Below are positions 5,458-42,780 of a stretch of 64,000 nt of DNA, one piece after another. The first letter of the stretch is position 1, and each line of letters starts with the position of its first letter. The translations under genes were made by a program, and so were the position numbers. Below the pieces are notes generated by a model. The model saw nothing but the letters and a program-made list of their open reading frames with translations, ran no database searches and was not told where the DNA came from. The stretch comes from Gentiana macrophylla (taxonomy: Eukaryota > Streptophyta > Magnoliopsida > Gentianales > Gentianaceae): contig CM047806.1 of assembly GCA_026214975.1 (NCBI GenBank), positions 4,625,822 through 4,689,821 of the forward strand, written 5' to 3'.

Positions 5458-5719
5458 TGTTAAAATATAGGTGTATATAGGTCCCTTATAGTCTTCTTTT
5501 ATGTTTTTCTTTTTGTCTTAAGTGTCCTAAATATGTAATTAGAATGACTTTCTACTGATTTCTGTTTTTACTACTTTTGGCCAGAGTCTGCTGTTCGTGA
5601 GCGTTGGAGCAGTGTATTCTAGCCGTTTGGGGTTTTGCCTATTTATTGTAATCTTCTAAGCTTGTTATCTCTATAAAGAAGCTATCGATAAAATCTTCTT
5701 TCCTCCTATCTTTTTCTAC
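5458..5719 (+). repeat. 5' LTR of copia 1
   Basis: It matches 10171-10432 closely along its length, with scattered substitutions and 1-bp indels. It begins TGTT and ends near TTTTTCTAC. It carries a run of promoter-like AT-rich sequence (tatttattgtaa, ctctataaag) before its end. Confidence 0.9.
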
Positions 5720-6894: not shown

Positions 6895-7330
6895 TGGATT
6901 GTTGATTCGGGGCCTCGAGAACATATGACGAGGAAATAAGGGTTGTTTCACTCCTTAATTCCCTGTAAACATGAAAGATTTGTGAGAATTGCAGATGGAT
7001 CCACTTCCAAAGTGCAAGGAATTGGATCTATCAATTTTTCCAAGGATCTGATCCTTGATCAGATTCTGTATGTACCAAATCTGTCATGCAATCTCTTATC
7101 AGTGAATAAACTGGTAAAGAGACAAAACTTATCAGTCATGTTTCATGAGAATAAGTGTATCTTACAGGAGAACAGCTCTGGGAAGATGATTGGCAATGCT
7201 AGTGTTACCTCTGGCCTATACATGCTACCTACTGATGCTGGTTCTCTGGATACCAAAAACTCTGCTTTGGTTATTGATTCTGTTGATTGTAATAGTGACC
7301 TATTGTTTTATGGCACTTTATAGATTGGGG
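6895..7330 (+). pseudogene. Copia 1 protease and pre-integrase remnant
   Basis: The aspartic protease active-site region reads WIVDSGPREHMTRK, which fits the copia WIxDSGAxxHM pattern with the alanine replaced. It is followed in another frame by GSTSKVQGIGSINFS and ILYVPNLSCNLLSVNKLV, the standard downstream portion of copia protease. Near 7320-7345 RLGHPNF marks the GAG-pre-integrase segment. A stop interrupts between the active site and the rest. Confidence 0.75.
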
Positions 7331-7437
7331 CACCCCAATTTTTGTATCACGAAAAGGCTTATGCCTCAGTTGTTTATCAATAAGAATGTATGCGATTTTC
7401 GATTGTGAAATCATTGTATGGCTAAACAAAGTAGGGT

Positions 7438-7950
7438 GTGTTTCATACTAAGTCTTATGCCCCTCCAAGCCTTTCCATCTTATACATAGTGATATTTGGG
7501 GACCTTGAGGGCCAAGAATATCACTGGTACAAATGGTTCATCACCTTCATTGATGATCACACCAGTTGTCTTTGGGTGTTCTTGATGAAGAGAAAGCGGC
7601 AGAGGGCTATCTTCATGAACTTCTTTCTCATGATTAAGACTCGGTTTGAAAGCGATATTAAAATCCTCAAGTCGGACAATGGAGTGCGAATATTTTGAGA
7701 ACCATCTGGGGAAATTCTTCAAAGAGAAAGGGATTATTCACCTAACTTCATGTGTTGATACTCCCCAACAAAATGGGGTTGCGAAAGAAAGAAAAATAGG
7801 CACCTCGCTTGACCTTTGCAAGGGCACTTATGTTTGCTATGAAAGTGCAAGCACTTTTGGGAGAAAATCATGTCTAAGCGCCACATATCTCATTAACGAG
7901 AATGCCATCAGGGTTTTGAAATTCAAAACCCCTATGGCGATCTAGCTGAA
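7438..7950 (+). pseudogene. Copia 1 integrase core remnant
   Basis: The rve integrase core is recognisable over two frames. The first catalytic Asp region is WFITFIDDHTSCLWVF. The second is ILKSDNG, followed after a frameshift near 7690 by EYFENHLGKFFKEKGI. The Glu region is TPQQNGVAKERK. The DD-E residues are therefore all present in the DNA, but in different frames. Confidence 0.8.
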
Positions 7951-8749
7951 TGCATAGCATCTTCCCACTTAATTCAAAATCGCCCCTAAGGTGTTTGGGT
8001 GCATTGCATATGTTCACAACCACCCACAGAACCAAACTTGAACCTAAGGCATTCAAGTGCATTTTCCTTGGCTATTCACGAGGCGAGAGGGTTACAAATG
8101 TTTACGCCCTCAAACTAGAAAATTCTTTAATTCAATGGATGTAACCTTCTTTGAAGGTAAAGCCTTCTACCATCAGAAGGGAATCACTGGACTATGTCAC
8201 ATCCTCTCAAGGATGGGATATGAGTCTGGAACTTTACACTCTGCGGATAAAGGAAGTATAAATCAAGGGAAGTTACTACCCACGATAATACTCAAAATCC
8301 TTCAACCTCATTCGAAATGGAGTCTTTTAACCCTAGACCTCCAATTCGGAGGGTTTATACTAGAAGAAGCAGGAATGAACTTGAGAATCAAGAACATCAA
8401 CCTCATTACGAGAATGATGATTCTTTAGAACTTCATGACACTTATCGGGATCAACTTTGAGGATGGTACTACCTCAGAATCACCTAAAAGATCTATTAGC
8501 ACAGTCAATTATGATGATAGACCTATTGCTTTGAGAAAGGAACAAGGGCTTGCACCCGATATCCTTTATATAATCTCACGGCAATAGACTAGATTTCTAC
8601 TTCTATCAAGTTTTCATACAAAGCTTGGATAAAAACAAAATTCCTCACTCCATTCATGAAGCCTTGGGAATTCTGAGTGGAAACAAGGCATCAATGAGGA
8701 ATTACACGCTCTAAACAATAATCACACTGGACACGACTCTCTCTTACAA

Positions 8750-10080
8750 GGAAAGAAAGCGTTGGGGTGCAAGTGGATTTTCACCTTGAAATACAACTCG
8801 ATGGCACCATTAACGAGGCATAAGGCTAGATTGGTTGCTAGGGGTTACACTCGGACTCATGGCATAGATAACCAGGAGACTTTTGCACGGTGGCAAAGTT
8901 AAACACCATCGAGTGCTCTATCTATTCTTTGTGAATCTAGATTGGTACTTACACCAACTAGATGTAAAAAATGCTTTCTAAATGGTGACCTAAAAGGAAG
9001 TTTACTTAAAGTTGCCTCGCTGGAATTGACTATCCAGGGAGTGAAAATAAGGTGTGTAGATTACACAAGCTCTTTATGGACTAAAGCGAGTCCACAGAGC
9101 TTGGTTTGGCGATTACCAAAGTTGTTAAGAACCTTGGGTTCATACAAGGTCAAAGTGACCACACTATGTTCACCAAGTGTCACATACGGAAAAAGAGTCA
9201 TCCTCATTGTATATGTGGATGACATTATTGTCTTGGAGATGATGCCCGTGAGATTGAGTCTACTAAAGCATTGTCTTGCAAAGGAGTTTGAGGTTAAAAC
9301 CTTGGGCCGGATGAAATACTTCCTTGGAATGGAAGTGGCTAGAGTCTAAGGAGGGATATTCATATCTCAAAGGAAGTACATTTTAGACCTTCTTTACAAA
9401 GCAGGGGATGCTTGAGTGCAAACTGCCTCACTCTGTTGATCACAGGGTAAAATTGGAAAAGGAAAGTAAAAGCGCACTGTGGATGTTGGCGAGATATCAA
9501 AGGCGGTGGGAAAATTGATTTACTTGGCTCATACTAGACCAGGACATATGCTATCTTTGTGAGTGCAGTCGGCCGATTTATCATCATCCTTGTCAAGAAC
9601 ATCTTGATATTGTTCATAGGATCTTTGAGGTATCTAAAAGAATTGCTTTGGTCAAGGTCTTATCTTCAAGAAATCCAAAGATAGAAGGATCCATGTCTTC
9701 TTTGATCTTTGATTAGGCGAGTGCTGTGGTTGATAGAAGATTTACTCACGGCTATTGCTCTATTTTTGGGAAATCTCACCACTTGGAAGAGTAAGAAACA
9801 ACTTTGTGGTTTTAGAAGCGATCTGAAGGTGAATTGAGGGCCTTGGCCCTTGGTATTTAATGAAGGATTATGGCTCGGGGAAGATCTAGTTGACACAAAG
9901 ATCAAGAAAGAGCATCTGTACTTCTCTCTTGTGATAATGTATGCGCTTATCAATATGTCTGAAAACCCCATTCATCATGATAGATCCAAACATATAGACA
10001 TTGTGAGACACTTTATCAAAGAAAAATCGAAGATCAAGATATCAACATTGAATTCATACCTCTCCGAGATCAAGTGGTGA
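8750..10080 (+). pseudogene. Copia 1 reverse transcriptase and RNase H remnant
   Basis: The best frame, 8942-9349, contains the RT catalytic motif LIVYVDDIIV (around 9206-9235) and further on LGRMKYFLGMEVARV. Upstream pieces in other frames match the N-terminal RT fingers. The RNase H C-terminal part is at 9850-10078 with NMSENPIHHDRSKHIDIVRH. Frameshifts and stops separate these blocks. Confidence 0.8.
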
Positions 10081-10170
10081 TATTTTTACTAAAAGTGCAC
10101 TCTACTATATTCACGAGAATGAGATACAAGCTAAATTTGTTATTACATACACAACCAAGCTTGAGGAGGG

Positions 10171-10432
10171 TGTTAAAATATAGGTGTATATAGGTCCCTT
10201 ATAGTATTCTTTTATGTTTTTCTTTTTGTCTTAAGTGTCCTAAATATGTAACTAGGACACTTTCTACTGGTTTTCTGTTTTTTCTACTTTTGGCCCAGAA
10301 TACACTGTTCATAGACGTTGGAACAGTGTATTCTAGCCGTTGGGGGTTTTTGCCTATTTATTGTAATCTTCTCCTTGTTATCTCTATAAGGAAACTATCA
10401 ATAAAATACTTCTTTCCTCCTATCTTTTTCTA
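10171..10432 (+). repeat. 3' LTR of copia 1
   Basis: This is the second copy of the ~262-bp LTR, preceded by the purine tract aagcttgaggaggg. The right flank is caactcaacaactcaacaatc, which continues into sequence shared with 38943 onward. Confidence 0.9.
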
Positions 10433-10721
10433 CAACTCAACAACTCAACAATCAGTAAATAGAAAATTCACTACAACATACAGTGATTTTGGAATCTCGG
10501 CTAAATCGATAAGGCCACTTTATGGTAGATTTGGATACTCACCAAGTTTCATTGTCGCAAACTAGAGCATCTCTCCAGGGTTTGCAAAAATAAATCAAGT
10601 TCATCGCTGTCAAATGGGAAGTATTAACAAAAATAGTAGCCAACAAATTAACAAGTAACTATCTTTTTTTCTTTTGAAATAAACTGAAGATGTAAATTCA
10701 AAATGAAGTAAAAGATAAAGT

Positions 10722-13141
10722 CTTACCTACTCTGACCCTGAAGGTCATTTCCATAGGACCACATAGTATCATATAGAATAGTGTATATTTTAGGAAACAC
10801 ACTATTAATTCGCAGTGCAATGTCAACAGAGGTCAATTTCTGAAAAGAATTGATAAAAGGGTTGAAGTACTCAACAACAAGATAATACATAAATAATGGA
10901 AGAAGATAAAGTGCTTACGGTATGACCACGATGATGGTTGTAGCTGTGGTCATTAGCATAGTTAAGAACACATAAGTATGAAATGGATAATATAAGTTTG
11001 AGATCGGAACCATAACCACTATCGCCTTTAAAATTGTAAATTGCATTCAAAGGTTGTCTTTAGAGATAAATGACTTCCAACCCTTGATTTAGCTGCCCAT
11101 CAAGTAGGTAGTAAACATGGGTTCCTCAATTAACCACAATGCGAAAGCATCATTTAGAATCACGATAAAATCGACTTATGCTCCAATGGCCAGAAGAATG
11201 GATGATCGATCAACCATGTTGTTTGAATCATATGATCAGACCTGCGTGAAAGGTAAAAAACATAATCAAATATTTTATAATTGTTAATAAAACAATTAAA
11301 TCTTAGGGCAAATTTCAATATTCCATCTTCACCAAGTATATATAAGATAACAAAATCTAAATACCTTTTTAGCATTACTGGACTTGCAGTATGTATTTAA
11401 TTAGTTTTCTAATTTTGATTAAAAGGAAAATACTAGATTATTATATACTTACACTTTCTTATCTCTTAAACTCGTAATAAAAAGTGATACAACTCGGATG
11501 GCAGTTTATAAGAATCTACAAATTCCTTGTGCCAAGCTTCCTGATCTATTCTAGTCCTTGGGTTGATTAATGTAACAATAGCTTCCATAGTGGATAACAA
11601 ATCATCCAAATCTTTTTGAGCTTTAGATTTAGAAAAAAGTTCACCACTGACGCAAAATATTCTTCCTTGTCCATCATCAGTGACATACATGGAAGAATCC
11701 AGATCACCACAAGTCATCTTTGCCGAATGAATAGCATACAACCCACATAATATTTCACTGCAAATAAGGAATAACATATTAAACTAATGCAAAAAAAAAG
11801 AAAAAATAAATAAATTAATTGACTAAGGAAAAAATTAATTACCGAAAAATTGTCTGAAAGCATTCACGGATGAATTCCCACCATTTCCTTTCATTTTTAG
11901 TATTAAAATCAGTTTCTTTATTGTTACTATTAAAACAAGTCAACTTTCGCTCGAAAAATACTTGGATAGGAATAACCGGCTCAACAACATATAAGTTATC
12001 CAATGATGATTGTAGTAAAAATTCAGATTTTAATATGTTGCGCCGGCGCCGCAACATATTTTCTGACAACTGCAAATAGCGTATACTTATTAGTAAAAAC
12101 GTGAGGAAAATGGATTAAAACAAAAAACAAAACAAAATTATTGAAATTACCACTAATGATTCTGGTTCTGCGGTCTTTTGTGATGAAGAAGCCACGGTAA
12201 TAGGGGAGCATGCTACCGAGGAGGTTGAGGGGACCATGCTGCGGTCTTTTGAGGCGAAGAAGGGAGCATGCTACCGAAGAGGACTCGGCAACTAGCAGTT
12301 GGACTCGACAACTCCACGGGAGAATCGACCTTTGAAGTTGAGGAGGAGGATCGAGCTTTGAAGTTGAAGTTGAGGAAGGAGGATCGAGCTTTGAAATTGA
12401 AGTTGAGGAGGAGGATCGAGCTTTGAAGTTGAGGAGGAAGAGAGTTTATCGACTTCAATTTCCTTTATAAGTTGCTCGGCTTTTCGATTGTGATTCGACT
12501 ATTTTGGATCTAATTCAAGTATTTCCTTTATAGAATCGATTTTGCAACATTGGCGGGTTTTATCATCTATATCCTTATGGCCAAGAAGATCCTTAAACAA
12601 GCGATATGCATCCTCATGATTTGAAAGATAAAAGTTGCAAACAACTGCAAGACATTTCACAAGTATTAATTAATGTCAATCTTTGCTATTATACTGCCTT
12701 GTGCAGCACACATATATATATTAAAATGAAAACATAAATTCTCACGCTTCACGGAATAATGTTGACAAAGATTTATCGCTATGTCCGTGGGCCTTATGAA
12801 GGCCTATCAGTGCCAATGCCTCTGATCAAAACATAATTAATTAAAAAAATGACATTAATGTATTAATAATCGGAACTTGAAAACTTAAATTGTAGTTAGA
12901 AAAGATAAGAAATTTAGATCAATATAAACTCACCTTCATATCTTTCGGTCATCACATTGCAAACGATTGCACTTTCATAGATTTTAAAATTACGCATGGC
13001 ATTACCATCTATGGTGCTAATATACTCCAAGCACTTCTCATATTCTTCTCCAGAGCACAATTCATCAACTTTCTTGGATTTATCTCTCAGCTTTTTTTTT
13101 TCTTTATCTCTTCTCTTTTTTGCATCTTCTTGATCCTCCAT
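10722..13141 (-). CDS. Putative TPR-like / pseudokinase / KEN-domain protein (IRE1/RNase L-related), 7 exons
   Basis: I built this gene from GT-AG exons on the minus strand: 13141-12934, 12821-12746, 12644-12151, 12069-11843, 11757-11472, 11241-10919 and 10839-10722 (stop TAA). The start MEDQEDAKKRRDKEKK is highly charged. Exons 1-3 encode TPR-like helices (GEEYEKCLEYISTIDGNA; FYLSNHEDAYRLFKDLLG) and a Ser/Gln/Leu-rich repeated linker. Exon 4 (QSSLDNLYVV) and exon 5 (EILCGLYAIHSAKMTCGDLD) resemble the C-lobe of IRE1-type kinases, but HRD has become CGD and the DFG position reads CVSG, suggesting a pseudokinase. Exon 6 has DHPFFWPLEHKSIL, like the HPxFW start of the KEN nuclease domain, and exon 7 has RINSVFPKIYTILYDTMW. 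The reading frame has a phase problem between exons 2 and 3, a stop in exon 3 and breaks in exon 6, so it is a pseudogene or carries sequence errors. The IRE1-like reading is inferred from motifs only. Confidence 0.6.
12330..12440 (-). repeat. Short tandem repeats in KEN-gene linker exon
   Basis: A ~30-36 bp unit containing gatcgagctttgaagttga recurs three to four times. It encodes a low-complexity Ser/Gln/Leu linker in the third exon of the gene, and a change in copy number would lengthen or shorten the linker. Confidence 0.75.
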
Positions 13142-14075
13142 TGTGGTTAAGATTTATAAGCAAATCTAAACACAAACAAAACAAGATACTAATGAAACAT
13201 GTTTTCGATACCAAAAAAACATTACGATAGTGAAAATCCATAGTGTAAACCAGTATCTGCATCCGTGTCATATAGAATAAGCAGCTTTCCATAGCCACCA
13301 CAGGAAACCCCCCAATAAGCAAAAGCACAAAGCACAATATGATTTGAGGAGTAACAACAACACATAACGCACAAGAAAGAAACAGTTTGAGGAGATGACT
13401 AATCAGTGATCATTGTTATTACGAACCCTCTTTTTTTTTTTACCATAAAATCAAGAAAGAAAGAATGAAACCCGAAAATTAGTGTATTCCCACGAACCCA
13501 CCACTACTAGTGACATAGCAACTATACGCAGCTTTACGATGCCACACACCGATCAATATACGTGAACAAAGTGGATACTTACAGTAGCTATATTATATTC
13601 TATGTTGCGTATACAAGTCACCGGAAGCAAGAAGTATTATATATCTAAGTAGAACACATTTTGCAAATTGAACTACTGACCTTATGAGAAACTGAGCTTC
13701 ATGCTAATAATAGAGCATTCATGTTGGGATAGACTTCATATGTTGAGCTATTTAGAACCAAATACCAAGCACAATGTTGCTGAGAATAACTCAAAACTAA
13801 GTATGACTAAATTAATGTCAACACCGAAAGGCAACCAGAATATTATTCAACCACTTTAAGTAATCTTCAACATACTACCTATTCAATTTCAGGCAAAGTA
13901 AATAGTAGGATGCAAAATTACCGAAGCAGAATCAAGTTCAGCAAGCCTACAACAACTGATTACATATCCTAAATCGGTCCATCTTTTGTGCAGCGGTTTT
14001 TTTTTCCCGCATGATCCAAAAAGAGACCCCAGGAGTTATGATTTCCAGCTAAAATTTCACCTTTCGATTCAATAC
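13142..14075. other. Upstream region of KEN gene, no gene seen
   Basis: It presumably contains the promoter of the minus-strand KEN-type gene. It holds a T-run at 13430-13441 and no convincing coding frame. It ends at the target site aatac (14071-14075) of copia 3. Confidence 0.5.
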
Positions 14076-14196
14076 TGTGGTAATTGAGTATTGTATTGAT
14101 ATGTCAAAGTGTTACAAGATTACAGTATATATACTAGTACAAGGGTTATAAAAGTAAATACACATTAGCTAGGTATTGTTAATTATATCTTCAACA
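14076..14196 (-). repeat. 3' LTR of copia 3 (121 bp)
   Basis: It is identical to 16973-17093. On the minus strand it runs TGTTGAAGAT to TTACCACA. The purine-rich tract before it (minus strand) corresponds to 14197-14212. Confidence 0.92.
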
Positions 14197-14239
14197 CGCC
14201 CCCGCAATCCCGTGGGTAGGGAGTAGACACGGAGATTGT

Positions 14240-15052
14240 TCTTCAACATAGTAAAGCGTGGATTTCCCAAAGGCTTGGTGAGTAAATCCGCAAGTTGGTC
14301 CTTGGAAGTGAGGAAGGCAGCGTTGAGCTTCTTGGCGCAATTAGCTCGCGAACATGGTGGAAGTCGATTTCAATGTGTTTGGTGCGGCGTGGAAAACCAG
14401 GTTGTGGCGAGGTATGTGGCACCAATATTGTCACACCAAAGTCGGAGTAGGAGTGACAATGAGCATATCACGTGAAGACTACTAATCCTTTGAATTTCAG
14501 ACGCGGTGTTGGAGAGGGTCTTGTACTCGACCTCGGTGCTACTCTTAGAAAGCGGTGAGATCTTTGTTTGGGCGCCCGACTAATAAGGTTATCCCGAGAA
14601 AGATGCAATAGGCACCGATGGAGGCGGCGATTGTCGGGATCGGCCCAATCTGAGTCGAGATGCGCCTGCAGTGCGGAGAGAACGCCGGGGAGAAGAATAA
14701 GCCGTCGAGACCGTGGCTTTAAGGTAGCAAGTAAGCGTTTGGCTAGCGACCAATGATCCTCGGTAGGGGCATGCATAAATTTACTTGCCTTGTGAACCGC
14801 AAAGGCAATGTGCAGACAGTAAAGCCGAGGTATTGAAGGCCACCAACAGCGATGCGATAGAGGGCGGATCCGAGAACAAAGGACCGAGATCATAGTGCGA
14901 TCGGGGTGGGCGGCCATAGGGGTGGAACACGGTTTGGACTTATCCATGTTCGCTATACGGAGCAATTGAAAGATATACTTGCGTTGCGTGTGAAAGAGAC
15001 CATCCGGTGTATGAAAAGCTTCAAATGCCGAGAAAGTAGGAAAGAGGGACAT
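14240..15052 (-). pseudogene. Copia 3 RNase H and C-terminal RT remnant
   Basis: Minus-strand frames show ALEAFHTPDG-type sequence after a short SYFLGI-like motif, then KYIFQLLRIANMDKSKPC, HIAFAVHKASKFMHAPTEDH and SDWADPDNRR. These are the thumb/connection and RNase H landmarks of copia polyproteins. Farther down, near 14400-14350, WCDNIGA and an AKK..AAFLTSKDQLADLLTKPL-like ending appear in other frames. Several frameshifts separate the blocks. Confidence 0.75.
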
Positions 15053-15054
15053 TA

Positions 15055-15400
15055 CTATTCGGCGTCTGTTATCACTTGGCTAACATTTCACGAGGTTGGC
15101 CACGCCGCCAAATTGACATTCAAAATCGTTTCTTCATGGCAACCTTACGAGGCGGTTTATATGGCCCAACCCCAGGATTTGTCCACCACGACCATCCCAC
15201 TTATGTTTGCCGCTGAAAGCGCGATCTATATAGTGAAAGCAGGCTCACGGGCATGGTTCTCTCGCTTCATTTGATGTACTCACCTCGTTCGGCTTTCTTG
15301 GCTCTAAAAGCGGATCGTCACTCTACATTTACTCTCGGGGATCTATTCGACTTTACATTCTTATTTATGTGGATGACGTACTTATTAGGAAGTAAAATAT
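15055..15400 (+). pseudogene. Copia 3 reverse transcriptase core, inverted
   Basis: Plus-strand frames carry the RT palm region. Near 15112 QIDIQN with FLHGNL in a neighbouring frame, then AVYMAQPQDLSTTTIP and RAIY, and at 15354-15389 ILIYVDDVLI, the copia catalytic YVDD. Everything else in this element reads on the minus strand. The first RT residues lie next to the RNase H block and the YVDD end lies next to the pre-integrase block, which is the arrangement expected if this ~340-bp piece were inverted in place. Confidence 0.75.
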
Positions 15401-16867
15401 TTAAAATGCGTAAAGCAGCGAAGAACTTGGTGGGGCGGTGACCGAGGCGGTGATGCCATGGAGTGGAGGAGGAGCCGTGGGTGATGAGCATGGGCGAGGG
15501 CTACGAGGAGGGTCGCCCGAGCGGTAGAGGCCATCGTGGGCGGTGCCTTTAAGAAGAGTGGTGCCGAAAGATCCTTCACAAGAAAGAAAGAATCATGAAA
15601 TTCAAAATAAGCGAGTTGTCGGCACAAAAGCGTTGAGCGACAATAGATTTTTAGTTAGCGGGAGACACAAGCACGTTAGAAAGGTGAGTGCGTGTGAGAG
15701 GTGTGTAAAATTTAGATGAGCGAGTGTGTGATAGGCAAACACTGAGCCATCGCCAATGTGGACTTGATCGGGACCATCATAAGGTTGAAATTAATGTTTA
15801 GATTGCGAAGGTCATTGGTGAGGTGATGTGTGGCACGGTATCGGGAAGCCATTGAGTTAGGGTTGTAGTGCGGGGGTAGCATCGGCTTGAGGTGGCGAGG
15901 TTTCTGGTGGGGTTATGGGGGGTGGGGTGGGCTGCGAGTCTGTGATTCGCTATACTGTAATAACACGCATAGGCGGTATGCCTACTACTTTACATATTTG
16001 ACAAGTAATAGAAAAGTCGTTACGGTGTTATTTGGCGTGAATTACCACGTCGCGACCACGACCACCACGACCTCGATAATTTGGTGAATGACCTGCGCCA
16101 CGAGTAGTGTTGTTGTGATTGGAGCCTTTGTTAGGCCCATAATTATTATTACCATAAGTGCCACCATTATTACCAGGGGCGAGTGTAATTGGCCTGGCGG
16201 TGGAAGCGGCGATCGGGGGCCATAGCGAGAGAGGGCGGTGGCCCGAATTCGTGACTCGGTGGTGAGAAGAGCGCGTAAAGCTCATCGGGGTAATTGACTC
16301 TTTTTGAGTCACCATGGTAACGAGGAATCATATTGAGGCCCAAGGCGGCGAGTAGGTAGGATTCTGAAGTCCTCGTCGGAGAGAGGTGACCGACCATGTG
16401 TAGTTAAATGCGAAAGGTTCTTGAGTTTGAAGTAATATTGAGATCTGAGGCAGGTGATCTTACCGGGTGGAGGCCAATTATTTCGGAGTTGGACCCGATT
16501 TCTTGCGGCTTTGTGATGCAAGCGGCGTCTGTATTTATCAAATTGCGGCGGAGGTAGTTCTTTGTGTAGACTTGGAGCAACACTTCGTCAGACGATGATG
16601 AAGTTATGGTGGAAAGGATCATCGATCCGTCTTAGTCGGTGCAAGATCGGTGTCATAGTCGGGGTTGGCTTCAAGCTTTCGGCGGCGTTGAGGGCTGCGG
16701 TGGAGAGGCGATGGAGCCGTCGATAAACCATTACGCCATGGCGCGTAGATAGGGTAGAAGGCCGAGCTCTCGAGGTTGTAGTTGAGGCGTGTCAATTTGG
16801 TGACATGAATGGAAGAAGCGGGGTGTGAGCGTTGGGTAACGTTGGGCAACACCGGTGGGGCTGTCAT
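15400..16867 (-). pseudogene. Copia 3 gag, zinc-region and pre-integrase remnant
   Basis: Gag begins near 16867 with HVTKLTRLNYNLESSAFYP and continues in shifted frames with STITSSSSDEVLLQVYTKN and SDEDFRILPTRRLGPQYDS. A Gly/Asn/Arg-rich end, NYRGRGGRGRD, lies near 16060. At 15627-15480 FHDSFFLVKDLSA and, in another frame, HDGLYRL mark the GAG-pre-integrase domain. No integrase DD-E core follows. Confidence 0.7.
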
Positions 16868-27180: not shown

Positions 27181-28390
27181 CTTTGTTATCACTCAATTCT
27201 CATCTTGCCACAAACTATACTAAGGCACGAAACCGCACTTACGATGTTTAACCACTTGAAGCTTTATCGCCCAGTGATCAATCAACCTTTAAAGTACCAA
27301 AGCGATGGCATTCAACTTTGTTCTCGACTCGGGTTCTACATCTTTCTGAATAGTCTTGAATTTTCAACATCATACTCTCCTTACACTTCCATTCATTATC
27401 TTTATTTTATACTCGTATTCCCGTTCCCAAGGCAACTCAAATCTTTGATTATCGGTGATAATTCTACCTTAAAACCTTTGTAAAGATAAAACTTCCACAA
27501 TTTCAAGGTAAAGCGCCCTTTGCCATTTCGAGTTCACGAGTATTATGATTCTTTTCATAAAACTTTAACCGTTTGGAACAACATCACCTTAATTGAAGAC
27601 TTGTGGAAAAGTTTACACTTTTGTATTAAGCGACTTGCTTTTAAAATTTGGATAGATGGTTCACCACCATGACCATTCATTCGATTCGATTACACTATTC
27701 TTTCTACTTGTAAAAAACATAAAAACCTTTGAAAAGATCCACACACACTTTACTGTCTTAGTGGCTCGGACTACACACTTCAAAACCATGCCACTTGATT
27801 TTGGTCAAAGTGATACAAAACTTTTACGGAAGACCATTCCCGATCAACTCTCTTCCTGGAAACACATGCTTCGTGATCTTACTTGATCACCTAAAGATAC
27901 ACTTACCAACACCTTTCCCCTTGAAAGTTAAGCTAAAAATTTTAAGATGTTTGCATTTTCCTTTTTCATTCTTGATCATACCTTGATGTCATCTATGAAT
28001 AAATTCACAAAATTATCCATGTATGAAATGAAAACTTGTCGTATTAGGCTTAGAATGCATGGGAGCATTATCGAGTTCAACAAAATAACCAAACACTTCA
28101 AGTGTTCATAGCTAACTTTATCTTGTCCTTAGTATGAACAATACTTTAACTTTAGCTAAATGTATCTTGAACTCATACTATACTTAGAGAACCGGTGATT
28201 TTCTCCCATAACCACTAACAAGGGTGTCTCACAAGAACTCATTAGACCACCCGGCTTTTATACTAGTTTGCTCGACTTTACGATAACATTGCATCTGGTC
28301 ACAAAGCGAGCAATGTCTAGCTTCATACCAGGTCACGAGAATCCTTCTTAAGATCCCTCTCTACCTCTTAGTAGTACATGGATGAACTGC
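27181..28390 (-). mobile_element. Degenerate Ty3/gypsy pol remnant, unit 2 copy
   Basis: From 27303 onward this is the paralogue of 1277-2340: the same RNase H, RT (FIDDI region at about 27984-28005) and integrase zinc-finger pieces in the same rearranged order. 27181-27302 is additional sequence upstream of the shared block that may continue the RNase H region. Compared with unit 1 it carries several changes at CAG/CTG positions, for example actgagc becoming agcgagc near 28305. Confidence 0.65.
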
Positions 28391-28394
28391 AACA

Positions 28395-29980
28395 GAAAAC
28401 TAAGATCTTTCTTTTCCTTGTAGCTAACTGAGAAGGTCATCAATTCTAAACAATGGGTGTTTTATTTCCATTTTTTTAACTGCAGTTCATTTTCTTTTTT
28501 GTTAAAAAAGAAAAGGTTAGGAGTTTAAAATGTAATATTTATTTATGTGGTGTCATAAGTTGATTATGTGGTCTTAGATAAAAAAAAAAAAAATATGTGA
28601 GTGCAAATGAAAATAGTTGAGTGTCTTAATAAAAAGTTATGTATTAGTACTAGTTAAAATAAGACATGATATTTGTACTTTATATATTAAGCTTTGGATG
28701 TAAGCATGTTGACTTGTGTCATGTGTCGTTTATTTGTTACTAAATCGTGTTTAGGGTAAAATATTTGAAATTGTTGCTACTCGTCTTCGTGTTTGTTATG
28801 GGTAATATATTTATGAGAGCTTCATCACATCTCTTCCAACTTAGAAACAAGCTCCTTCATTGCCCTCTCAAGTTGCAACGCACCAGATCTGTAGGTAGGA
28901 ATGCAAAAATAAAAAGTATGTTTACGCATTAGAAGCTTAGGAGATAGTAGAAGCTTCACTTAAGGTATGCCTAGATTGAGGTATCTTCTTTACTCATTAG
29001 AAGCTTAGGAGATAGGAGTCCATCACACAAAGGGCTGATTTACAACATGTTTGAACTATTGAACAAAGCAATGAAAAGCGCACATCTGAAAAGTAAAAGA
29101 AAATAAATTGACATATCACCAGGTACAGGAAACAAATGAGCAAACTATTAATTTAGTTGATGCAAACAATAATATACTAAAAGTTTTAACATTATTTCAA
29201 TGCTAAGACTTAATAGACATTTTAGACTTTCCAAATAACAGGGTGACGTGGGGTTGATGGTGCAAAGGGGAGGAGGAAACAGAGAAAAAATGGGGACAGG
29301 GAAACATCGAGAATAGGAAGGTGGCTAGCCTGGGTGGTGAATTTTATCAAGGGGAGTAGTTTAGGGGCCATTTGTAAAACTATTTGAAAGATTGGTTAAA
29401 GATGGTAGAAGCTTCACTTCAGGTATGCCTGGATTGTGGGTATCTTAACACGTACTGTATTAATTAGAAGCTTAATTAGGAGATAGAGAGTCGATCACGC
29501 AAAGGCCTGATTCAGAATATGTTTGAAATATTGAACAAGCAATGAAAAGCACGACTAAAAGTAACAACAATTGGACATATTAGGAGGTACATGAAACAAA
29601 TGAGCAATTATAAGGATGACAAGCAATTATAAGGATGACAAATAATTTCTTTCAACCAATATCTGATATACTGAAAGCATTGATGTACAAATACGTACCC
29701 CCGATAAGAAAAGCACTGTTTCTTTGTACTGCACGCAGCCTACTCTTACGACAGACAGATGGGCAAGAGAAAAAACTTTAAATTCCTATGAACGTGTATA
29801 AAATTAAACTAGGTTACTCGTGAATCTTATTAATAGTATACCCCTAACACCAGCTTAGGTCCCTGGAATAATAGAATCTAAAAAAAACCACCCTTAACAT
29901 GCATGTAATGTGAATACCAATGGCATGCAAAATTATGGGATTACATGTGATTAACGTGTATATACGGTATAGGGTTGCAA
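28395..29980. other. Non-coding duplicated block, unit 2
   Basis: It matches 2390-3730 in direct orientation except for the inverted stretch 28627-28812. It also has extra, partly self-repeating sequence around 28950-29010 and 29395-29480, where variants of cttcaggtatgcctggatt and ttagaagcttaggagat recur. No gene is seen. Confidence 0.65.
28627..28812. repeat. ~185-bp block inverted relative to unit 1
   Basis: It reads agttatgtattagtactag to gtttgttatgggtaatatat, the reverse complement of 2598-2781, while the sequence on both sides stays collinear with unit 1. A third copy, in the same orientation as this one, lies 3' of the second kelch gene (32270-32440). Confidence 0.8.
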
Positions 29981-29981
29981 A

Positions 29982-30551
29982 ACTCGTCAAAAGAAAACTG
30001 GTGTTTCCGAGGATTTTGTTGTGATGGTTAGTATACGGGTTTTGACCTTTTTTATTGTCTTTGAAAAGGCGTCAAGCGAAGACACATCGCTCACGAGCTT
30101 ACAACTCGTCAATGTCTTTTCATCACATATACACATACATGTGTCTCGTCGTAGTTAAAAATGACAAAAACAAAGCTGGTGTTTTTAATGATTTTTCATG
30201 ATGGTTAGTACCACGGGTTTTGGCGTTTTTGATTGTGTTGTAAAGGCGTCTTATCTTGCTTGTAACTTGCTATATTTGATCACATTACTATTATAACGTC
30301 TTACATGCTACTCTAGATTGGTTGCAAAACCCGTGTACACCATCACAAAAAAGCCTCGAAAACACCAGTTTTTGTCATTTTAACCACAGCGAGGCACATG
30401 TATGTATCGTGATGGAAGAGCGTTGACAAGTAGTAAGATCGTGGCGATTTGCCTTCTGTTTGAGGTCCTTTATCACAATCAAAAAGCGTCAAAAACTCGT
30501 GTATTAACCATCACAAAAATCCTCAGAAAAAACCAGTTTTTCTTGGCGAGT
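29982..30551. mobile_element. Foldback/MITE-like element with nested inverted repeats
   Basis: The outer arms are inverted repeats of about 70 bp: 29982-30050 (ACTCGTCAAAAGAAAACTGG start) and 30480-30551 (ending CCAGTTTTTCTTGGCGAGT). An inner, related pair lies at about 30157-30245 and 30300-30400. All arms share the words ctggtgttt, ttgtgatggttagta and gggtttt. There is no coding capacity. No clear TSD was found. It lies exactly where direct homology with unit 1 ends and the inverted kelch block begins. Confidence 0.65.
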
Positions 30552-30867
30552 AGTAAGTAATGTGAGCAGTAGTTTTATGGTGGTCGGGATGGCAAATGCA
30601 ATCTTGTCTCTAATAAATTTCTTAAAAGATGGGCAAATTTGTAAAAGCATGTCGTTTATATTTTTCTGCGGTGGATGCTGTGTGTTTTCTTGATTTATTG
30701 GTTACGGATCGTGAAGTCATCTTGCAGTCAGGAATAATAAAAACTACGAGTAACGAATGGTGATTTGCATGAACGTGAATCGAAACCCCTAATCAAAACC
30801 TAATTTGAAGGACATCAATGGGAAAAGAAGAAGAGACGGAGAGGATGGTTGTGGAGAGGAGAGCGTG

Positions 30868-31924
30868 ATGGGAGGGGATGCAGATTCATTGGGTAACAGG
30901 TTTATTATATTGCAGGCCAAGCAGACCGACGACGACGTCCCTGAGGAGATTGGTTACTATTCTAATGTTAGGCGTTTCAATACTACTGGTTACTATCGTC
31001 TGGATCTCCATACTGGTGATGTCTCAATCCTTCCTCGTACAGTGCAGGATCAAGGTTCCATGAGTTCCGTGGTGGCTTTGGGATCTAAAATTTACATCTT
31101 TGGTAGGCAAATCAATAACTCTGATTCCAAAAAACCTTGCTCCTCTTATTTTCTAGATCTGGCCGATTCCCAAAAATCATCATCATCTTGTTGGAAAAGA
31201 GCCCATCCTTTGAGTACTGATCGGTTGCCATTAGGCGGTGCTGTCGCATTTGATGGCAAGATGTATTATTTTAGAAATTCTGATGATTTTGCTTCCCTTT
31301 GCGAGGTTTTTGATCCTACTCTACCTAAGCCCCAGTGGCGTTGCATAAAATCTACACCTACACTAGGTGGAGGTGAAATACATCCACGGTTGCTACTCCA
31401 GTACTGGCGGATCACAAAAATAATAGAATCATTGTATTTCTTAGCAATATCTGTTCAATGTACGCCTACTATCCTTGTGAGGATCGATGGGAGTGTTTGG
31501 TGGAGGGCTTTTTGGTGGACGGCTATAGAAGATGGTTTTATCTCGAACCAGTAACAATTGTAGACAGGGTTATATATTTTCATCGACCCAAACTGAGTTG
31601 CTTCTTTATGGCTTTTGATATAGCCACCCAAGAATGGCTCAACGTTACCTCTGATGCTGTTGAAAACTATAAATTTTATCTACCTTTACCCATTTATCCT
31701 TGTTTGTTACATCTGGGCAATGACATACTCTGCGTGCTTACTTGAGATATAAGGATCGTGAATCCGACCAAAGCCTAACCACCCTTGTTCATGTTGTGCA
31801 ATTCAAAGTCAAGCTCATCAACAATAATGGCACAAAGGAGGTGATTGTCACTCCGCTTCCTTCCCGTTCCCATTACTATGATCTTGATTCTAGCTGTGGT
31901 CTTTATCACTGCCTTGCTCTCTAG
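30868..31924 (+). pseudogene. Kelch-repeat protein gene, copy B (frameshifts)
   Basis: Paralogue of 4082-5154 in opposite orientation. I chose ATG at 30868 (MGGDADSLGNRFI) because the ATG at 30818 runs into a stop in its own frame. The first 170 codons are open and retain the kelch-like strands ALGSKIYIFGRQ and GAVAFDGKMYYFRN. A base lost near 31384 (catccacgg against catcccacgg in copy A) shifts the frame, which continues in another frame from about 31458. A second loss near 31743 (acttgag against acttcgag) creates an early TGA; the last 60 codons continue after it. The stop at 31922-31924 is followed by a GTAAGG donor, with the acceptor ending at 32159 (3' UTR intron). The breaks differ from those in copy A. 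Confidence 0.8.
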
Positions 31925-32159
31925 GTAAGGTAAAGTAATTTGTTTCACTCATTATGTATAGTTGTTGCTGCTGTTCTCCATACTCAGTTTCACTGCTTTT
32001 GGTCATTCGGTATTTTCTGCCCGAAATTAAGTTAATTTCCACTATTATTGTCATAACCCCTTAATAACTGATTAACTTGTCTTTCTCTCAGTTATTTCTT
32101 CTTTGCACCCAAAACCATAATTATATTCTATCAAATGTTTCTCTTCTCTGATGATGCAG

Positions 32160-32620
32160 TTGTATGACCCTACTATTCACACACTACTTGTATGTTAGAC
32201 CTTGCTGCAACTTGAGAGAGGGCAATGATGGAGCTTCATTTCTAAGTTGGAAGAGATGTGATGATATGGTGAAAGTTATGTATTACTAGTAAAAATAAGA
32301 CATGATATTTCTACTTTATATATTCACCTTGGATGCTGTAAGCATGTAGACTTGTGTCATGTGTCCTTTATTTGTTACTCAAGGGTAAAATATTTGGAAT
32401 TGTTGCTACTCGTCGTGTTTGTTAAGGGTAATATATTTAGGTGTGTTGTATTGGCGCTCATTATTTTAAATTAGTGCAGCGTATATTTTGTTTTTGTTTT
32501 TGTTTTATTTTTATTTTTATTTATAGTGTGCATGTCAGCTAATAGCGTCGCGTAAATAAAAAGTGAAATATTACATTTGAAACCCTATCCTTTTCTTTTT
32601 ACAAAAAAAAAAAAAAAAGA
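32160..32620 (+). other. Kelch copy B 3' UTR and downstream homology
   Basis: After the 3' UTR intron, 32160-32216 matches the copy A 3' UTR. The junction at 32210-32220 (ttgcaacttgagagaggg) then jumps directly to the equivalent of 2840 and proceeds to about 2450 (reverse complement). The ~950 bp present at 2846-3793 in unit 1 are missing. It ends in an A run near 32601-32616. Confidence 0.7.
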
Positions 32621-33720
32621 AGAAGACATTTAAAACGACTCATAGCAAACTTTCAATAATGATAGGAGGAGTTTTCCTTTAATTTGAGCTGTTATCCAAT
32701 AATGATATTTTACTGCTACAATTACTAGTAACATTACCAGCACCCACAAGTCTTTTAAGGTTTATGTTTATGAAGATTTTTTTGGATAAATTATTAGAGT
32801 TCAAATTTAGAGGAAAAGTTACCCCATGGCAATAGAATTAGGTAATAATACTCAAATTTCTGGGGGCCTAAAAAAAAATCCAGATATTATAAAGATATAT
32901 TTCTAGGGGACTAAATTGAGCCCTTTATAAAGATACTTCACCTTTCTTTTCTTTCTTCCTTGCGCTGGGAAACTCACTCTTCATTAGTGATTACTGATAT
33001 AAACTTGCTTCAGATAACTGCTCAGGGTGATGCACCTTCAGAATGACGAATTAAATCTTTTCTATAACATGCTCCAGGGTGAGCAACTTTAATCTGAAGC
33101 AAATATTGACTCCATATATATTATACATAAATCAACCCAAACTCAGAGATTTTCATACAAAATATAACTTGACCTTTATGAGCTCGTGATTATGCGCGTG
33201 TTTTCATTGATTTTACTCGAGGATAACGTATGTAATATTGATAGCAAAAGTTAGTATCGCCGGTGCCTAGTAAAATTGATGCGCTACATATCAATATTAA
33301 TAAGCTAAACATTACAAGCAGCTCTCCACAGTTTTAGTCCACTATCTTAGATAGATGCCCACTTGAAAACTTTTCTCCTCAAGTGGAAAAACTACAACAT
33401 AGCCATCGTTTAATATCTTAGGATGTTTGTTATAATTGTAACGACACATCACCGAATCGAATTGAACTGAACATGACGATCATGCGTTCTAACCACCTGC
33501 ACAACATTGCGACAAAGGTCCACAAGTACTACTACTTGTAGTCTAATGCTAATTATGATACTTCACAATATGAAAAGCCAATAACATTACACACAAGAAT
33601 GCTTTAATACTTGACTAAATATGTAAGTAGAAACCTATTAAAATCAAAACATTAACTATGGTGCTATTGCATCACTCTTGGAAATCCATTAAAGCTTTAC
33701 ATATGTTCCTTGAATTTTGT

Positions 33721-33751
<31 letters not shown>

Positions 33752-33810
33752 AAAACTAAGTCTTCCAGAATCAAACTACTAAAGCTGTTAAAACTATTAC
33801 TGCAACTATG
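32621..33810. other. Intergenic DNA, no gene
   Basis: AT-rich, with a 28-base A run at 33728-33755 after a CA repeat. No coding frame or repeat partner was recognised. The last five bases, ctatg (33806-33810), are the left TSD of copia 2. Confidence 0.55.
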
Positions 33811-34185
33811 TGTTGAAATGTAAACTTGATTTTGAGCCTTAATTTCTCAAGAGTCCAAAATTAAATAGGCCTTAAGGTCAAGTTCTAGAAACTTGTATGA
33901 GTTAATCTAGAATTATGTTGTAGGATGTACTTGTGTGGAGAATTCTAGAGAGTTAATAAATTATCTTGTATGGAAGACACTAGAATAAGGTAGTAAAGGA
34001 ATAAGGTGGAAGGCTCAGAAATAATCTAGTTGAAGACTAGTACTATAAATAGGACCCAAGCCATAGTGTTTGTATCAAGCAAAAAATCAAGAAGTTTTGA
34101 AGTAATAAAGAAGTCTCTTCCATCAAATCTTCCTACCATCTTCCACTCTCAAATACTTCTCCATTAATAATATCTCATTCCAACA
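33811..34185 (+). repeat. 5' LTR of copia 2
   Basis: 375 bp, TG...CA ends. It contains ctataaatagg (about 34044), a good TATA-box candidate for element transcription. Confidence 0.92.
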
Positions 34186-34227
34186 AAGTGGTATCGAGAG
34201 GCGCAAGGTTAGTGATCATATCAAGAA

Positions 34228-35060
34228 ATGGCTAGCGGCATGGTACCCTTTCAAGTCGATGCTCAACAAAATCAATTATGATAATTGGAGCATCAAGATG
34301 AAAACCCTCTCTTGGATCATAAGATGTATGGGAGATAGTAGAGAAAGGCTACGATGAGCGAATAATGAAAGTGGTTTATCTCGAGCTCGGAAGGATAGTT
34401 TGAGAGACTCGAAAGAGAGACAAGAAAGCTCTCTACCTCGTTTATCAAGGGTTGGATGAGGATGCTTTTGAAAAGATATCGGAAGCAAAAGGCGCAAGAG
34501 GCATGGGAGAAGCTTCAAACTTCTATAAAGGCGAGATCCGGTCAAGAAAATCGTCTTCAAACCTTAAGAAGTGAGTTGAAGCTTTGCATATGAAAAGAAG
34601 GAGAAGTCGTCTCCGACTATTTCTACAAGTATTAACCATTACTAATCAACTAAAGAGGAATGGTGAAAAGCTCGATAGCGTAAAGATCATGGAAAAGATT
34701 CTTGATCGCTAAATCTCAAGTTCGAGCATATTGTTGCTATCATCGAAGAAACTAAGGACTTGGAAGCCATGACTATAGAACAACTCTTGGGTTCTTACAA
34801 GCTTATGAAGAAAGAAAAAGAAAAAGGAAGAGATTGTGGAACAACTCTTCCAAGACTCAATTAATCAAGAAAGAAACAAACAATCATAATGAAAGTCAAC
34901 ACATTCGCCACGGGGATATTGTAGAGGCGCGGTCGAGGGCGAGGGCGTGGACAAGGATATGGACAAGCGTCGACAATCGATTAGCGACAACGACAATTTT
35001 CAAAGGGAGGAACTCCATCACGAGGGCGTGGAAGAGGCAACTCAAAATCAAGGAATGATA
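34228..35060 (+). pseudogene. Copia 2 gag remnant
   Basis: The start ATGGCTAGCGGCATGGTACC (34228) encodes MASGMVPFQV and is followed in a shifted frame by NKINYDNWSIKMK, a typical copia gag opening. Further pieces read ALYLVYQGLDEDAFEKISEA, AWEKLQTS, RNGEKLDSVKIMEKIL and KFEHIVAIIEETKDLEAMTI in different frames. Where the family would have GCAGATCAGG the sequence has GCGAGATCCGG (about 34530), one of the CAG-site anomalies. Confidence 0.75.
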
Positions 35061-35068
35061 AGTCATAT

Positions 35069-35560
35069 GTGAAGTGTTATAATTGTGAAAAACACAGTCC
35101 TTATGCCTCCGAATGTAGAGCTCTAAAATTAATAGAGTTGAAGAAAAGGCCAACTATGTTGAAGAAAGAAATCAAGAAGATGGTACTCTACTTACAGCTT
35201 ACAAAGGCCATGAAATTGGAGAAGGATGGTACTTGGATACGGTGCAAGCAATCATATGTGTGGGAGAAAAAGCATGTTAAGTGGAGCTTGATGAATCGTG
35301 AGCGGGAATGTATCTTTTGGAGATGACTACAAAATAGCGATGAAAGCGGAGGTAAAATTCTTATCCGATTGAAGAATGGACAACATCAATTCATCTCGAT
35401 GTCTATTATGTCCCAAACATGAAGAGCAACATCTTGAGTCTTGGGCAACTTTTGGAGAAAGGTTATGATATTCACTTAGAGATAATAACCTTTACATAGG
35501 AGACAAAGCGAGACAACTTAATTGCTAAGGTGCGATGACAAGGAATAGGATGTTTGTGAT
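35069..35560 (+). pseudogene. Copia 2 zinc knuckle and protease remnant
   Basis: KCYNCEKHSPYASECR at about 35072-35118 is a CCHC zinc knuckle in which the histidine position is occupied by proline. The protease active-site DNA follows at about 35227-35262 (tggatacggtgcaagcaatc), where one missing base destroys the LDTGAS-type frame. Downstream, YVPNMKSNILSLGQLLEKGYD (about 35410-35470) is the usual end of the copia protease. Confidence 0.7.
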
Positions 35561-35574
35561 AAACATTCAAAGCG

Positions 35575-36300
35575 ATGTTGCAAAGTGTCTCAAGGCATGC
35601 TACAAAGATGCATCTTGGCTTTGGCATCTTCGATATGGGCATCTCAATTTTGGAGTGCAGAGTTGCTCTCCAAAAGGAGATGGTGAGAGGATTACCCGAC
35701 ATTCGTCATCCCGATCAAGTATGTGAAGGTGTCTACTTGGAAAACAATTTAGGAAAAGTTTTCGAAGAATCCACTTCAAGAGCTCAAAAGCCACTAGAAA
35801 TCGTACATCTGAGGCGTGTGTGGTCAATCAAACCAAGCTCTCTTGGTAAGAGTAACTATTTCCTCCTCTTCATGATGATTTTCAAGAAAAACATGGGTGT
35901 ATTTCTTGAAGCAAAAATCGAGAGGTCTTTGAGATGTTTAAGAAATTTAAAGGCTGCCGTGGAAAAGAGAGTGGCTAGAGATCAAAGCCTTGAGATCGAC
36001 CGGGAGGAGAATTCACCTCAAATGAATTTCAAGAGTTTTGTAGTGCAAATGGAATCGTCGGCCATTGGCGGTTCGAGTCCCCAAACAAAATGGAGTCGCG
36101 AAAGAAAGAATAGAACAATCCTTGATATGGCGAGGAGTATGCTCAAAAGCAAGAGACTTCCAAAGGAGCTGCAGGCGGAGGAACATTGCATCTGCGGTGT
36201 ACTTGTCAAATCGGTCACCAACAAAGTGTATGGGGCAAGACACCACAAGAAGCATGGAGTGGGAGGAAGCTTGGAGTCTCTCATCTACGAGTTTTAGGAG
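35575..36300 (+). pseudogene. Copia 2 pre-integrase and integrase remnant
   Basis: WLWHLRYGHLNFG (35616-35654) is the GAG-pre-integrase HxxxxH region. The integrase core appears in pieces: KPSSLGKSNYFLLFMMIF (the first Asp region, with FIDDF lost), and PQQNGVA-like coding DNA near 36080 read as PKQNGVAKER. The 240-codon frame at 35575-36297 shifts between domains and is a composite rather than a natural product. Confidence 0.7.
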
Positions 36301-36719
36301 CATAGCCCATGTTCACATACAGCGAGCATAGAAGAAAGTTGGATGATAAAAGCGAGAAGTATATTTTTATTGGTTACGACTCGACACCAAAGGATACAAG
36401 CTTTACAATCCGAATACTAGAAAAACAATCATTAGTCGAGATGTTATATTTAATGAAGAAGGAGAATGGGATTGGGAGACATGTGAGGATGACTATAACT
36501 TCTTCCACTTACATTGTGAGGGCGACATGGAGCAACCAAGAGAGGAGCCACTACCCTCGGCTTCACGGTTGCAACTACCCAAGAAGGCGTATTGTCATCA
36601 AATGAAAGCTCGGAAGAAAGAACTCCACACTTTAGAGTCTACAAGAAATATATGAGGTGTGAAAACCAAAATGATCTTACCTTATTTTGCCTTTTTCTTG
36701 ATTGTGAGCCAATGGACTT

Positions 36720-38220
36720 TGAAGAAAGGCTGCGAGAGCCAAAAGCTGGAAGAGCGCAATGGATGAAGAAATAAAGGCAATTAAGAAGAATGATACTTGG
36801 GAGTTAGCTACACTTCAAAAGGTCACAAGGCGATCGGTGTGAAGTGGGTATATAAAACAAAGAAAAATGCCAAAGGAGAAGTTGAAAGATATAAAGGCGA
36901 GATTAGTGGCAAGGGTATAGTCAAGAGTGGCATCGACTACGAAGAGGTTTTGCTCCGTTGCTCGACTAAGCTATAAGACTAATCATTTCTTTGGCGACTC
37001 AAAATAGGTGGAAAATACATCGAGATGGATGTAAAATGCCTTCTTAAATGGGATTCTTGAAGAAGAAGTGTATATTCGGCAACCACCGGATTCTGAAATC
37101 GAGGAAGTGAAGACAAAGTTTTGAAGTTAAGGAAGGCACTTTATGGGCTAAAGCAGGCTCCTCGAGCATGGAATAGCCGCATAGACAAGTATTTTCAAGA
37201 AAAGCTTTAAGAAGTGCCCATCTGAGCATGCTCTACATGTTAAAAGAAAAGCGAAAACATTTAATAGTTTGCCTATATGTGGGCGATCGATCTTCACGGC
37301 AACAATCCGAAAATGATTGAGGAGTTAAAGAAGGATATGGCCAAAGAATTTGAGATGCGGATATTGGACTAATGGCATATTATCTTGGCATTGAAGTAAA
37401 ACAAGAGGATCATGGAATCTTCATCTCACAAGAAGGATACACAAGAGATTCTCAAAGGTTCAAAATGGAAAATTGCAAGCGGTAAGTACACCGATAGAGT
37501 GTGGAATCAAGTTGTCAAAATCGACAAATCGGAGAGAATAGACCCTGACACTCTTTAAGAGCATGGTTGGAAGTTTACGATTACGACTTGTACAAGACCC
37601 GACATTCTCTATGCGGTTGGAGTAATCGATCGTTACATGGAAAATCAACAATAACTCCTTTGGAAAAGTGCAAAGAGAATTCTCCGGTATCTCGAAAGAG
37701 CGATAGATTATGGATTATACTATTCGGTTTGAGACAAGTACAAGCTTGTGGAGTTCTGGCCGATAGTGATTGAAATTTGGAGATGTGGATGACCGTAAAA
37801 GTACAAGCGGCCGCATTCTATATGGGAGACACCACTTTCACATGGATGTCAAAGAAACAACCGATAGTCACCACTTTCTTCATGTGAAGCGAGAATATGT
37901 AATTGCTACCTCGTGTGTTTGTCATGCGATCACAGCTCACGAAATCATTAAAGGAGTTGGGTTTGGCACAAGAAGATCCAACTACTATTGGCGTGGATAA
38001 CAAGTCGGCTATAGCTTTGGCCAAAAACCAGTCCATCATGATCGAAGTAAGCATATTGATCTGGCGCTATCACTACGTAAGGAGTGCATTGCAGAAAGAA
38101 TGTGCAAGTGGAGTATGTGAAGACACATGATCGGTGTGGACATCTTTACAAAACCACTTAAGCAAGAAGTCTTTGTGAAGATGAGAAACTTGATTGGAGT
38201 AAAGAAAAATCAAGTTTAAG
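36720..38220 (+). pseudogene. Copia 2 reverse transcriptase and RNase H remnant
   Basis: RT landmarks include WKSAMDEEIKAIKKNDTWEL-type sequence near 36745-36805, [13 protein letters not shown] near 37134-37170, and the catalytic region at 37274-37305. There the YVDD motif reads YVGD, and two further bases are missing where CTG and CAG would be expected (gatcgatcttcacggcaac). AYYLGIEVKQEDHGIFISQE follows at 37375. RNase H pieces lie at 37770-38150 (ASWSKKQ-like, then VDNKSAIALAKNQ at 38000). Confidence 0.75.
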
Positions 38221-38224
38221 AGGG

Positions 38225-42637: not shown

Positions 42638-42780
42638 TATATTATATACTTAATATAAAATGAATTTGTTACCCCATGCCATTTTAATTTTTTTGGGTGA
42701 GGAAATAATCGAAAGAAAGTGGTATTTTTAAGGAATAGCGGTGCTTTTCTAGGAAGAAGCGATAATCATATTCTCGGGGA

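What the first reader, a model, noticed from the sequence alone, without database searches (positions are those of the whole stretch)
10722..13141. TPR-like / pseudokinase / KEN-domain gene resembling a stripped-down IRE1 or RNase L
Exons on the minus strand join TPR-like helices, a charged N-terminus, a variable low-complexity linker, a kinase C-lobe lacking canonical motifs (CGD for HRD, CVSG for DFG) and a KEN-like end with HPFFW and FPKIYTILYD. The KEN RNase motif region reads VLNYANDHSYNHH, which keeps the Asn and His of the plant IRE1 RNK..H pattern but lacks the Arg. There is no signal peptide or lumenal sensor, so it would act in the cytosol or nucleus, unlike classical IRE1. TPR plus pseudokinase plus KEN is a combination I do not know as a characterised plant protein.
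Basis: partly seen in the sequence, partly recalled or inferred. Interest (0 to 1): 0.8.

Follow-up and report, generated by a model that had tools for sequence, protein, structure and literature searches.

The report
Broken copy of IRE1-like plant gene
The stretch holds a damaged copy of what looks like a real eight-exon plant gene whose second half resembles the kinase-plus-RNase half of the stress sensor IRE1 but has lost the known catalytic motifs; much of the damage may come from the genome assembly.

Summary
One relative was found (P0001, 381 aa, unnamed public contig); it matches the second half, E 1.9e-75 to my joined reading. As assembled the copy is broken: 14 frame-changing indels and one nonsense change against copy L024, 0.77 Mb away, which reads 601 aa to the stop but lacks the exon-4 donor GT. 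Ten of the 14 sit in runs of one base, between stretches without differences, in a 50-kb duplicate that ends at an assembly gap: this fits assembly error, but true decay is not excluded. The identification is weaker than claimed: no piece hits Ribonuc_2-5A or kinase in Pfam. The KEN-like half beats 200 of 200 shuffles against an IRE1 profile, but only with the HPxxW motif included. TPR is suggestive only. The RNase motif RNK..H is not kept; kinase motifs are degenerate. Most likely a sensorless, catalytically dead IRE1/RNase L-like protein acting by binding.

The parts
12934..13141 (-). exon 1: start ATG, charged N-terminus, first TPR-like helices
   Evidence: identical to L024; donor GTGAGT
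12746..12821 (-). exon 2: TPR-like helices (EALALIGLHKAHGHSDKSLSTLFREA)
   Evidence: identical to L024; GATCAG / GTGAGA borders
12151..12644 (-). exon 3: last TPR-like helices and Ser/Pro-rich linker; nine frame-changing indels against L024
   Evidence: in L024 an open stretch of 212 codons covers it, 0 of 1000 Markov-1 random sequences reach that
11843..12069 (-). exon 4: stretch that I take for the end of the N-lobe and the hinge of a kinase (NLYVVEP..FFER; my reading, no call); intact donor in the window
   Evidence: matches P0001
11453..11757 (-). exon 5: kinase C-lobe-like part (CGDLDSS, FCVSG); two-base insertion near 11483 puts a TAA in frame
   Evidence: 59-61% identical to P0001; lesion
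10919..11241 (-). exon 6: HPFFW and first part of the KEN-like domain with NYAND (NHAND in L024); four frame-changing indels and one nonsense change
10727..10839 (-). exon 7: KEN-like end (FPKIYTILYD)
   Evidence: identical to L024; matches P0001
   Evidence: GACAG acceptor, phase fits; LERCSS shared with P0001
38935..39452 (-). second partial copy (3' end of the gene, 97.1% identical) in the window's tandem duplicate

Best explanation
A genuine eight-exon plant gene of a small, poorly sampled family. It encodes about 600 residues: a charged N-terminus with TPR-like helices, a Ser/Pro-rich linker, a kinase-like C-lobe with degenerate HRD and DFG motifs, and a KEN-like domain without the RNK..H motif of the RNase. 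I infer that it descends from an IRE1/RNase L-like kinase-RNase, lost sensor and catalysis, and works in the cytosol or nucleus by binding: the TPR-like part holding a partner, the KEN-like part pairing with itself or another KEN protein or holding RNA. Shown: gene structure, conservation of the second half with P0001, absence of the known motifs. Inferred: descent, fold, dimerisation, function. The window copy as assembled cannot make the protein; I think most of its small indels are assembly errors in a duplicated stretch.
For: P0001 runs through four positions that are introns here (exons 4-8), so it was read from intron-free sequence. L024 gives one 601-residue reading over eight exons with fitting phases; my L024 reading and P0001 share 187 of 325 aligned residues. 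KEN-like half against an IRE1 profile: score 32.4, 0 of 200 shuffles reach it; 0 of 300 with four sequences. The HRD-like and HPxxW/KEN matches are in the same order as in IRE1. No transmembrane-like stretch. Assembly error: exons 1, 2, 7 and 8 have no difference from L024 while 14 frame-changing indels crowd into exons 3, 5 and 6, 10 of the 14 in a run of the same base; identical runs up to 649 bases against at most 119 in 200 random placements; 1306 indel columns to 1511 substitutions over the 51,131-column alignment, which ends at a 100-N gap; palindromes of 5.8 and 1.2 kb in sister loci.
Against: Pfam, NCBIfam and a PDB profile search do not name it. A single-sequence PDB search lists kinase STK24 at E 0.0016 for the whole sequence, but the kinase stretch alone has E 1.2. 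The KEN match depends on HPxxW; the kinase half is not significant. L024 lacks the exon-4 donor GT, so none of the seven places found in this genome is intact throughout. One exon-6 lesion is also in L027 on another chromosome and three exon-3 contractions are also in one or other arm of L025, which could mean shared true decay. P0001 does not contain the TPR-like part. No expression data.
Confidence: 0.5

Rival explanations
1. The window copy is a true pseudogene: a segmental duplicate that decayed after duplication, whatever the family does elsewhere.
For: 14 frame-changing indels and a nonsense change; of the other places, all but L024 hold only parts; lesions shared with L027 and L025; retrotransposon reverse transcriptase nearby.
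Against: Differences are bunched between perfectly identical stretches, 10 of 14 frame-changing indels are in runs of one base, and other duplicates show palindromes that look like read artefacts.
Confidence: 0.35
2. The protein is a largely helical plant protein unrelated to IRE1; HPFFW and FPKIY are a coincidence.
For: No family-library match; without HPxxW the KEN match falls to 14.8, reached by 45 of 300 shuffles; the kinase half is at chance level.
Against: With HPxxW the alignment runs through the whole KEN domain and no shuffle reaches it; an HRD-like stretch lies at the right place upstream.
Confidence: 0.3
3. The KEN-like domain is still an RNase with a rearranged active site, using the conserved His of HAND, or in P0001 the pair R303 and H309.
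For: H, HAND, the Y-N pair and an Arg after them are the same in all four rows of A2; P0001 has one R-x5-H (RIIHFIH), which formally fits the HEPN signature R-x4-6-H.
Against: R303 and H309 are Tyr and Leu in the L024 reading and do not line up with RNK..H of IRE1 without a gap; L024 has no Arg before the HAND motif from its second GSE on (by eye).
Confidence: 0.1
4. Exons 1-3 and exons 4-8 are two neighbouring genes.
For: P0001 starts its own reading without the TPR-like part.
Against: Exon 3 ends in phase 0 at a donor and exon 4 starts in phase 0 at an acceptor, and L024 is open through the linker; both parts also lie together in L025.
Confidence: 0.12

Closest known systems
IRE1 (kinase plus KEN RNase; two ordinary genes in this genome, L001 and L002)
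   Same: order of kinase-like C-lobe, HPxxW junction, KEN-like end with FP..(L/I)..Y
   Different: no lumenal sensor or transmembrane-like stretch, no RNK..H, degenerate kinase motifs, TPR-like N-terminus instead
Arabidopsis IRE1C (AT3G11870; PMC6788458, passages seen)
   Same: an IRE1-like gene whose product lacks the sensor domain
   Different: it forms its own cluster within the tree of IRE1 proteins there; that it keeps catalytic motifs is recalled, not checked
RNase L
   Same: kinase-like part plus KEN with a cytosolic repeat domain in front (recalled)
   Different: ankyrin rather than TPR-like repeats (recalled); active RNase; not listed in my PDB searches with this family
Lineage-specific KEN expansions in monocots (PMC3710099, passages seen)
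   Same: plant KEN domains apart from classical IRE1
   Different: the passages speak of KEN expansions apart from the kinase, of fusions to UBI or BRCT, and of the motif as conserved in 95% of KEN domains; no TPR fusion of KEN in the passages seen

Membership tests
KEN / Ribonuc_2-5A (PF06479) | match above the Pfam cut-off | tested here: not met
   no hit for nine exon pieces, P0001 or the L024 reading; the genome search with PF06479 gave nine matches, none in the window
KEN / Ribonuc_2-5A (PF06479) | R-N-K..H RNase motif (R-x4-6-H) | tested here: not met
   in a gapless alignment R and N are replaced (L-A or H-A) and His is kept in the four A2 rows, Tyr in the window; P0001 alone has an R-x5-H elsewhere, not shared by L024
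IRE1 | HPxxW junction followed by a KEN-length domain ending in FP..(L/I)..Y | tested here: met
   0 of 200 and 0 of 300 shuffles reach the score, but 45 of 300 once HPxxW is cut
IRE1 | HRD, its Asn, and DFG of an active kinase | tested here: not met
   HRD reads CGD (Asp kept); the loop Asn falls on Ser, Met or Ile depending on a gap; DFG falls on YVG in P0001 and CVS in L024 by the STK24 alignment
IRE1 | lumenal sensor and transmembrane segment | tested here: not met
   highest 19-residue hydropathy 1.23 in the L024 reading and 1.18 in P0001; the eight-exon model starts with a charged stretch. Exons further upstream were not sought
IRE1 / RNase L | kinase-KEN fold | not testable with these tools
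TPR proteins | TPR match above cut-off | tested here: inconclusive
   ANAPC3 E 0.005, SRP_TPR_like 0.047, TPR_2 0.069, all below cut-off; a motif count is no better than shuffles, 263 of 1000

The most novel reading that the evidence does not exclude
A plant family of TPR-bearing, sensorless, doubly dead IRE1 relatives (pseudokinase plus pseudo-KEN) that keeps a conserved HAND..YN motif and acts as an RNA-binding or KEN-pairing regulator, possibly a brake on IRE1.
Probability: 0.3. Interest if true: 0.6.

Novelty: new variant of a known kind. Interest (0 to 1): 0.4.

Why it matters
If the fold holds, it would show that plants have turned the IRE1 output module into a non-catalytic cytosolic protein, a natural test of what pseudokinase-KEN pairing does without catalysis. 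It also warns that frameshifts in this assembly cannot be read as gene death without reads.

Tried and rejected
Pfam and NCBIfam scans gave no family name. The first protein search found P0001 alone among 5144 candidates scored, the search with alignment A1 found only P0001 again, and the N-terminal part found nothing (71 candidates). PDB sequence searches gave only weak kinase lines, IFT56 at E 0.21 for the N-terminus and granulysin at E 1.9 for the profile. L007 and L008, other degenerate kinase-KEN genes here, were tried as a bridge: no link to this family (81 of 150 shuffles reach the score), though L008 matches IRE1 over the 23 columns around RN..HH (0 of 150). Paper searches (20 of 260 listed; 9 of 9; 15 of 18; on IRE1C: 12 of 32) gave the HEPN survey as the one listing I judged relevant to plant KEN proteins outside IRE1; only titles and abstract starts were seen for the rest, so this does not show that nothing is in print. 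My first view, plain pseudogene (note), was given up as the sole reading.

Full report
Where it lies. The gene is on the minus strand. Reverse transcriptase RVT_2 is at 8660-9346; repeats that look like LTRs lie at 5458-5719 and 10171-10433, 89.9% alike, the second beginning about 115 bases past the stop codon. Two pieces at 14172-15079 that I took for copia by eye had no Pfam match.

Gene model. Eight exons, 13141-10549, with GT-AG borders in the window and phases that fit in the sister copy L024. L024 reads 601 residues without a stop, except that its exon 4 ends without a donor GT, where the window has TTTTCG|GTAATT. The window has the donor but is broken in exons 3, 5 and 6.

The damage. 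Against L024 there are 14 frame-changing indels: exon 3 nine (plus one three-base insertion), exon 5 one, exon 6 four (recount, which lists a fifteenth at the exon-4 border where L024 is the odd one); 10 of the 14 lie in a run of the same base. Exons 1, 2, 7 and 8 have no difference, exon 4 none up to the border. One GAA-to-TAA change lies in exon 6. Of the four exon-6 indels, one is shared with L027, the other three are in the window alone among seven rows; three exon-3 contractions recur in an arm of L025, two in one and one in the other. Over 7002-16827 identical runs reach 649 bases, where 200 random placements of the same 939 differences gave at most 119. The window's bases 2-50345 match C2:3.860-3.911 Mb at 94.5%, up to a 100-N gap at 50346-50445, with 37 of 256 bins of 200 columns free of differences and 6 with 40 or more. 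L025 holds a 5.8-kb palindrome, L026 a 1.2-kb one, and parts of L026-L028 are near copies of each other. I read this as poor consensus in false or recent duplicates rather than true decay, without certainty; reads would decide.

Relatives. One protein scored among the 5144 candidates that the word search drew from about 5.8 billion: P0001, 381 aa, its frame crossing four intron positions, hence from spliced RNA or a retrocopy (inference). The own genome shows 15 exon matches in seven places (counts are lower bounds): L024 (exons 1-8), the window, L025 (5' part, twice, inverted), L026-L028 (exon 6), L029 (exons 5-7, DNA match to 10530). Some of these may be assembly duplicates.

What the protein is. 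The second half of P0001 plus my L024 reading was compared with an IRE1 profile of two plant, one yeast and one human row. The KEN half scores 32.4, with 0 of 200 column shuffles as high, and aligns from HPxxW to FP..Y; the kinase half scores 17.9, reached by 19 of 200. With HPxxW cut on both sides the KEN score is 14.8, reached by 45 of 300. A PDB search lists kinase STK24 at E 0.0016 for the whole of P0001, but its kinase stretch 111-165 alone has E 1.2, and a four-row profile finds no IRE1 or kinase. So the IRE1 likeness shows in order and spacing, but rests on few residues.

Catalysis. Where IRE1 has VIRNKLNHY, the rows of A2 read FILAVLNHA or FIHAVMSHA if laid without gaps from the preceding Ser, so His may stay but Arg and Asn are gone; hhalign places its gap elsewhere. 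The L024 reading has no Arg there; P0001 has one R-x5-H, R303 to H309, at residues that L024 does not share. HRD reads CGD, with the Asp kept; DFG falls on YVG (P0001) or CVS (L024) by the STK24 alignment. I expect neither kinase nor RNase activity (inference). The HEPN survey (PMC3710099, passages seen) says that Arg and His of this motif are needed in the KEN domain and that some HEPN domains lacking it probably bind RNA.

N-terminus. TPR-type models are among the best Pfam lines but below cut-offs, the one PDB match is IFT56 at E 0.21 (that it is a TPR protein is recalled), and a simple motif count is no better than shuffles. TPR-like is a fair guess, not a result.

Verdict. Real gene, broken copy, plausible IRE1-derived pseudo-enzyme; interesting if the fold is confirmed.

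Noticed in passing
window 2-50345: 94.5% duplicate at C2:3.860-3.911 Mb with strongly uneven differences, ending at a 100-N gap (50346-50445); possibly a false duplication.
   Followed up: partly
window 1277-23310 and 27303-44528: Tandem duplicate inside the window, in pieces and partly inverted; the second unit has the site without the copia-like insertion (around 38935-38947) and only the 3' end of the gene.
   Followed up: partly
L007 1501-1668 and L008 1501-1608: Other kinase-KEN-like genes: PF06479 matches with RN..HH kept, and neighbouring frames with a kinase-like stretch where VSS stands for HRD (by eye); a further PF06479 match at C3:137.52 Mb was not fetched.
   Followed up: partly
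L025 1586-7367; L026 4487-5641: Palindromes with arms about 90% alike that look like fold-back read artefacts.
   Followed up: partly
L026, L027, L028: Near-copies on C3 holding only the KEN exon with similar borders (window 10837 or 10851 to 11206 or 11422); exon capture by a mobile element or assembly duplicates.
   Followed up: no
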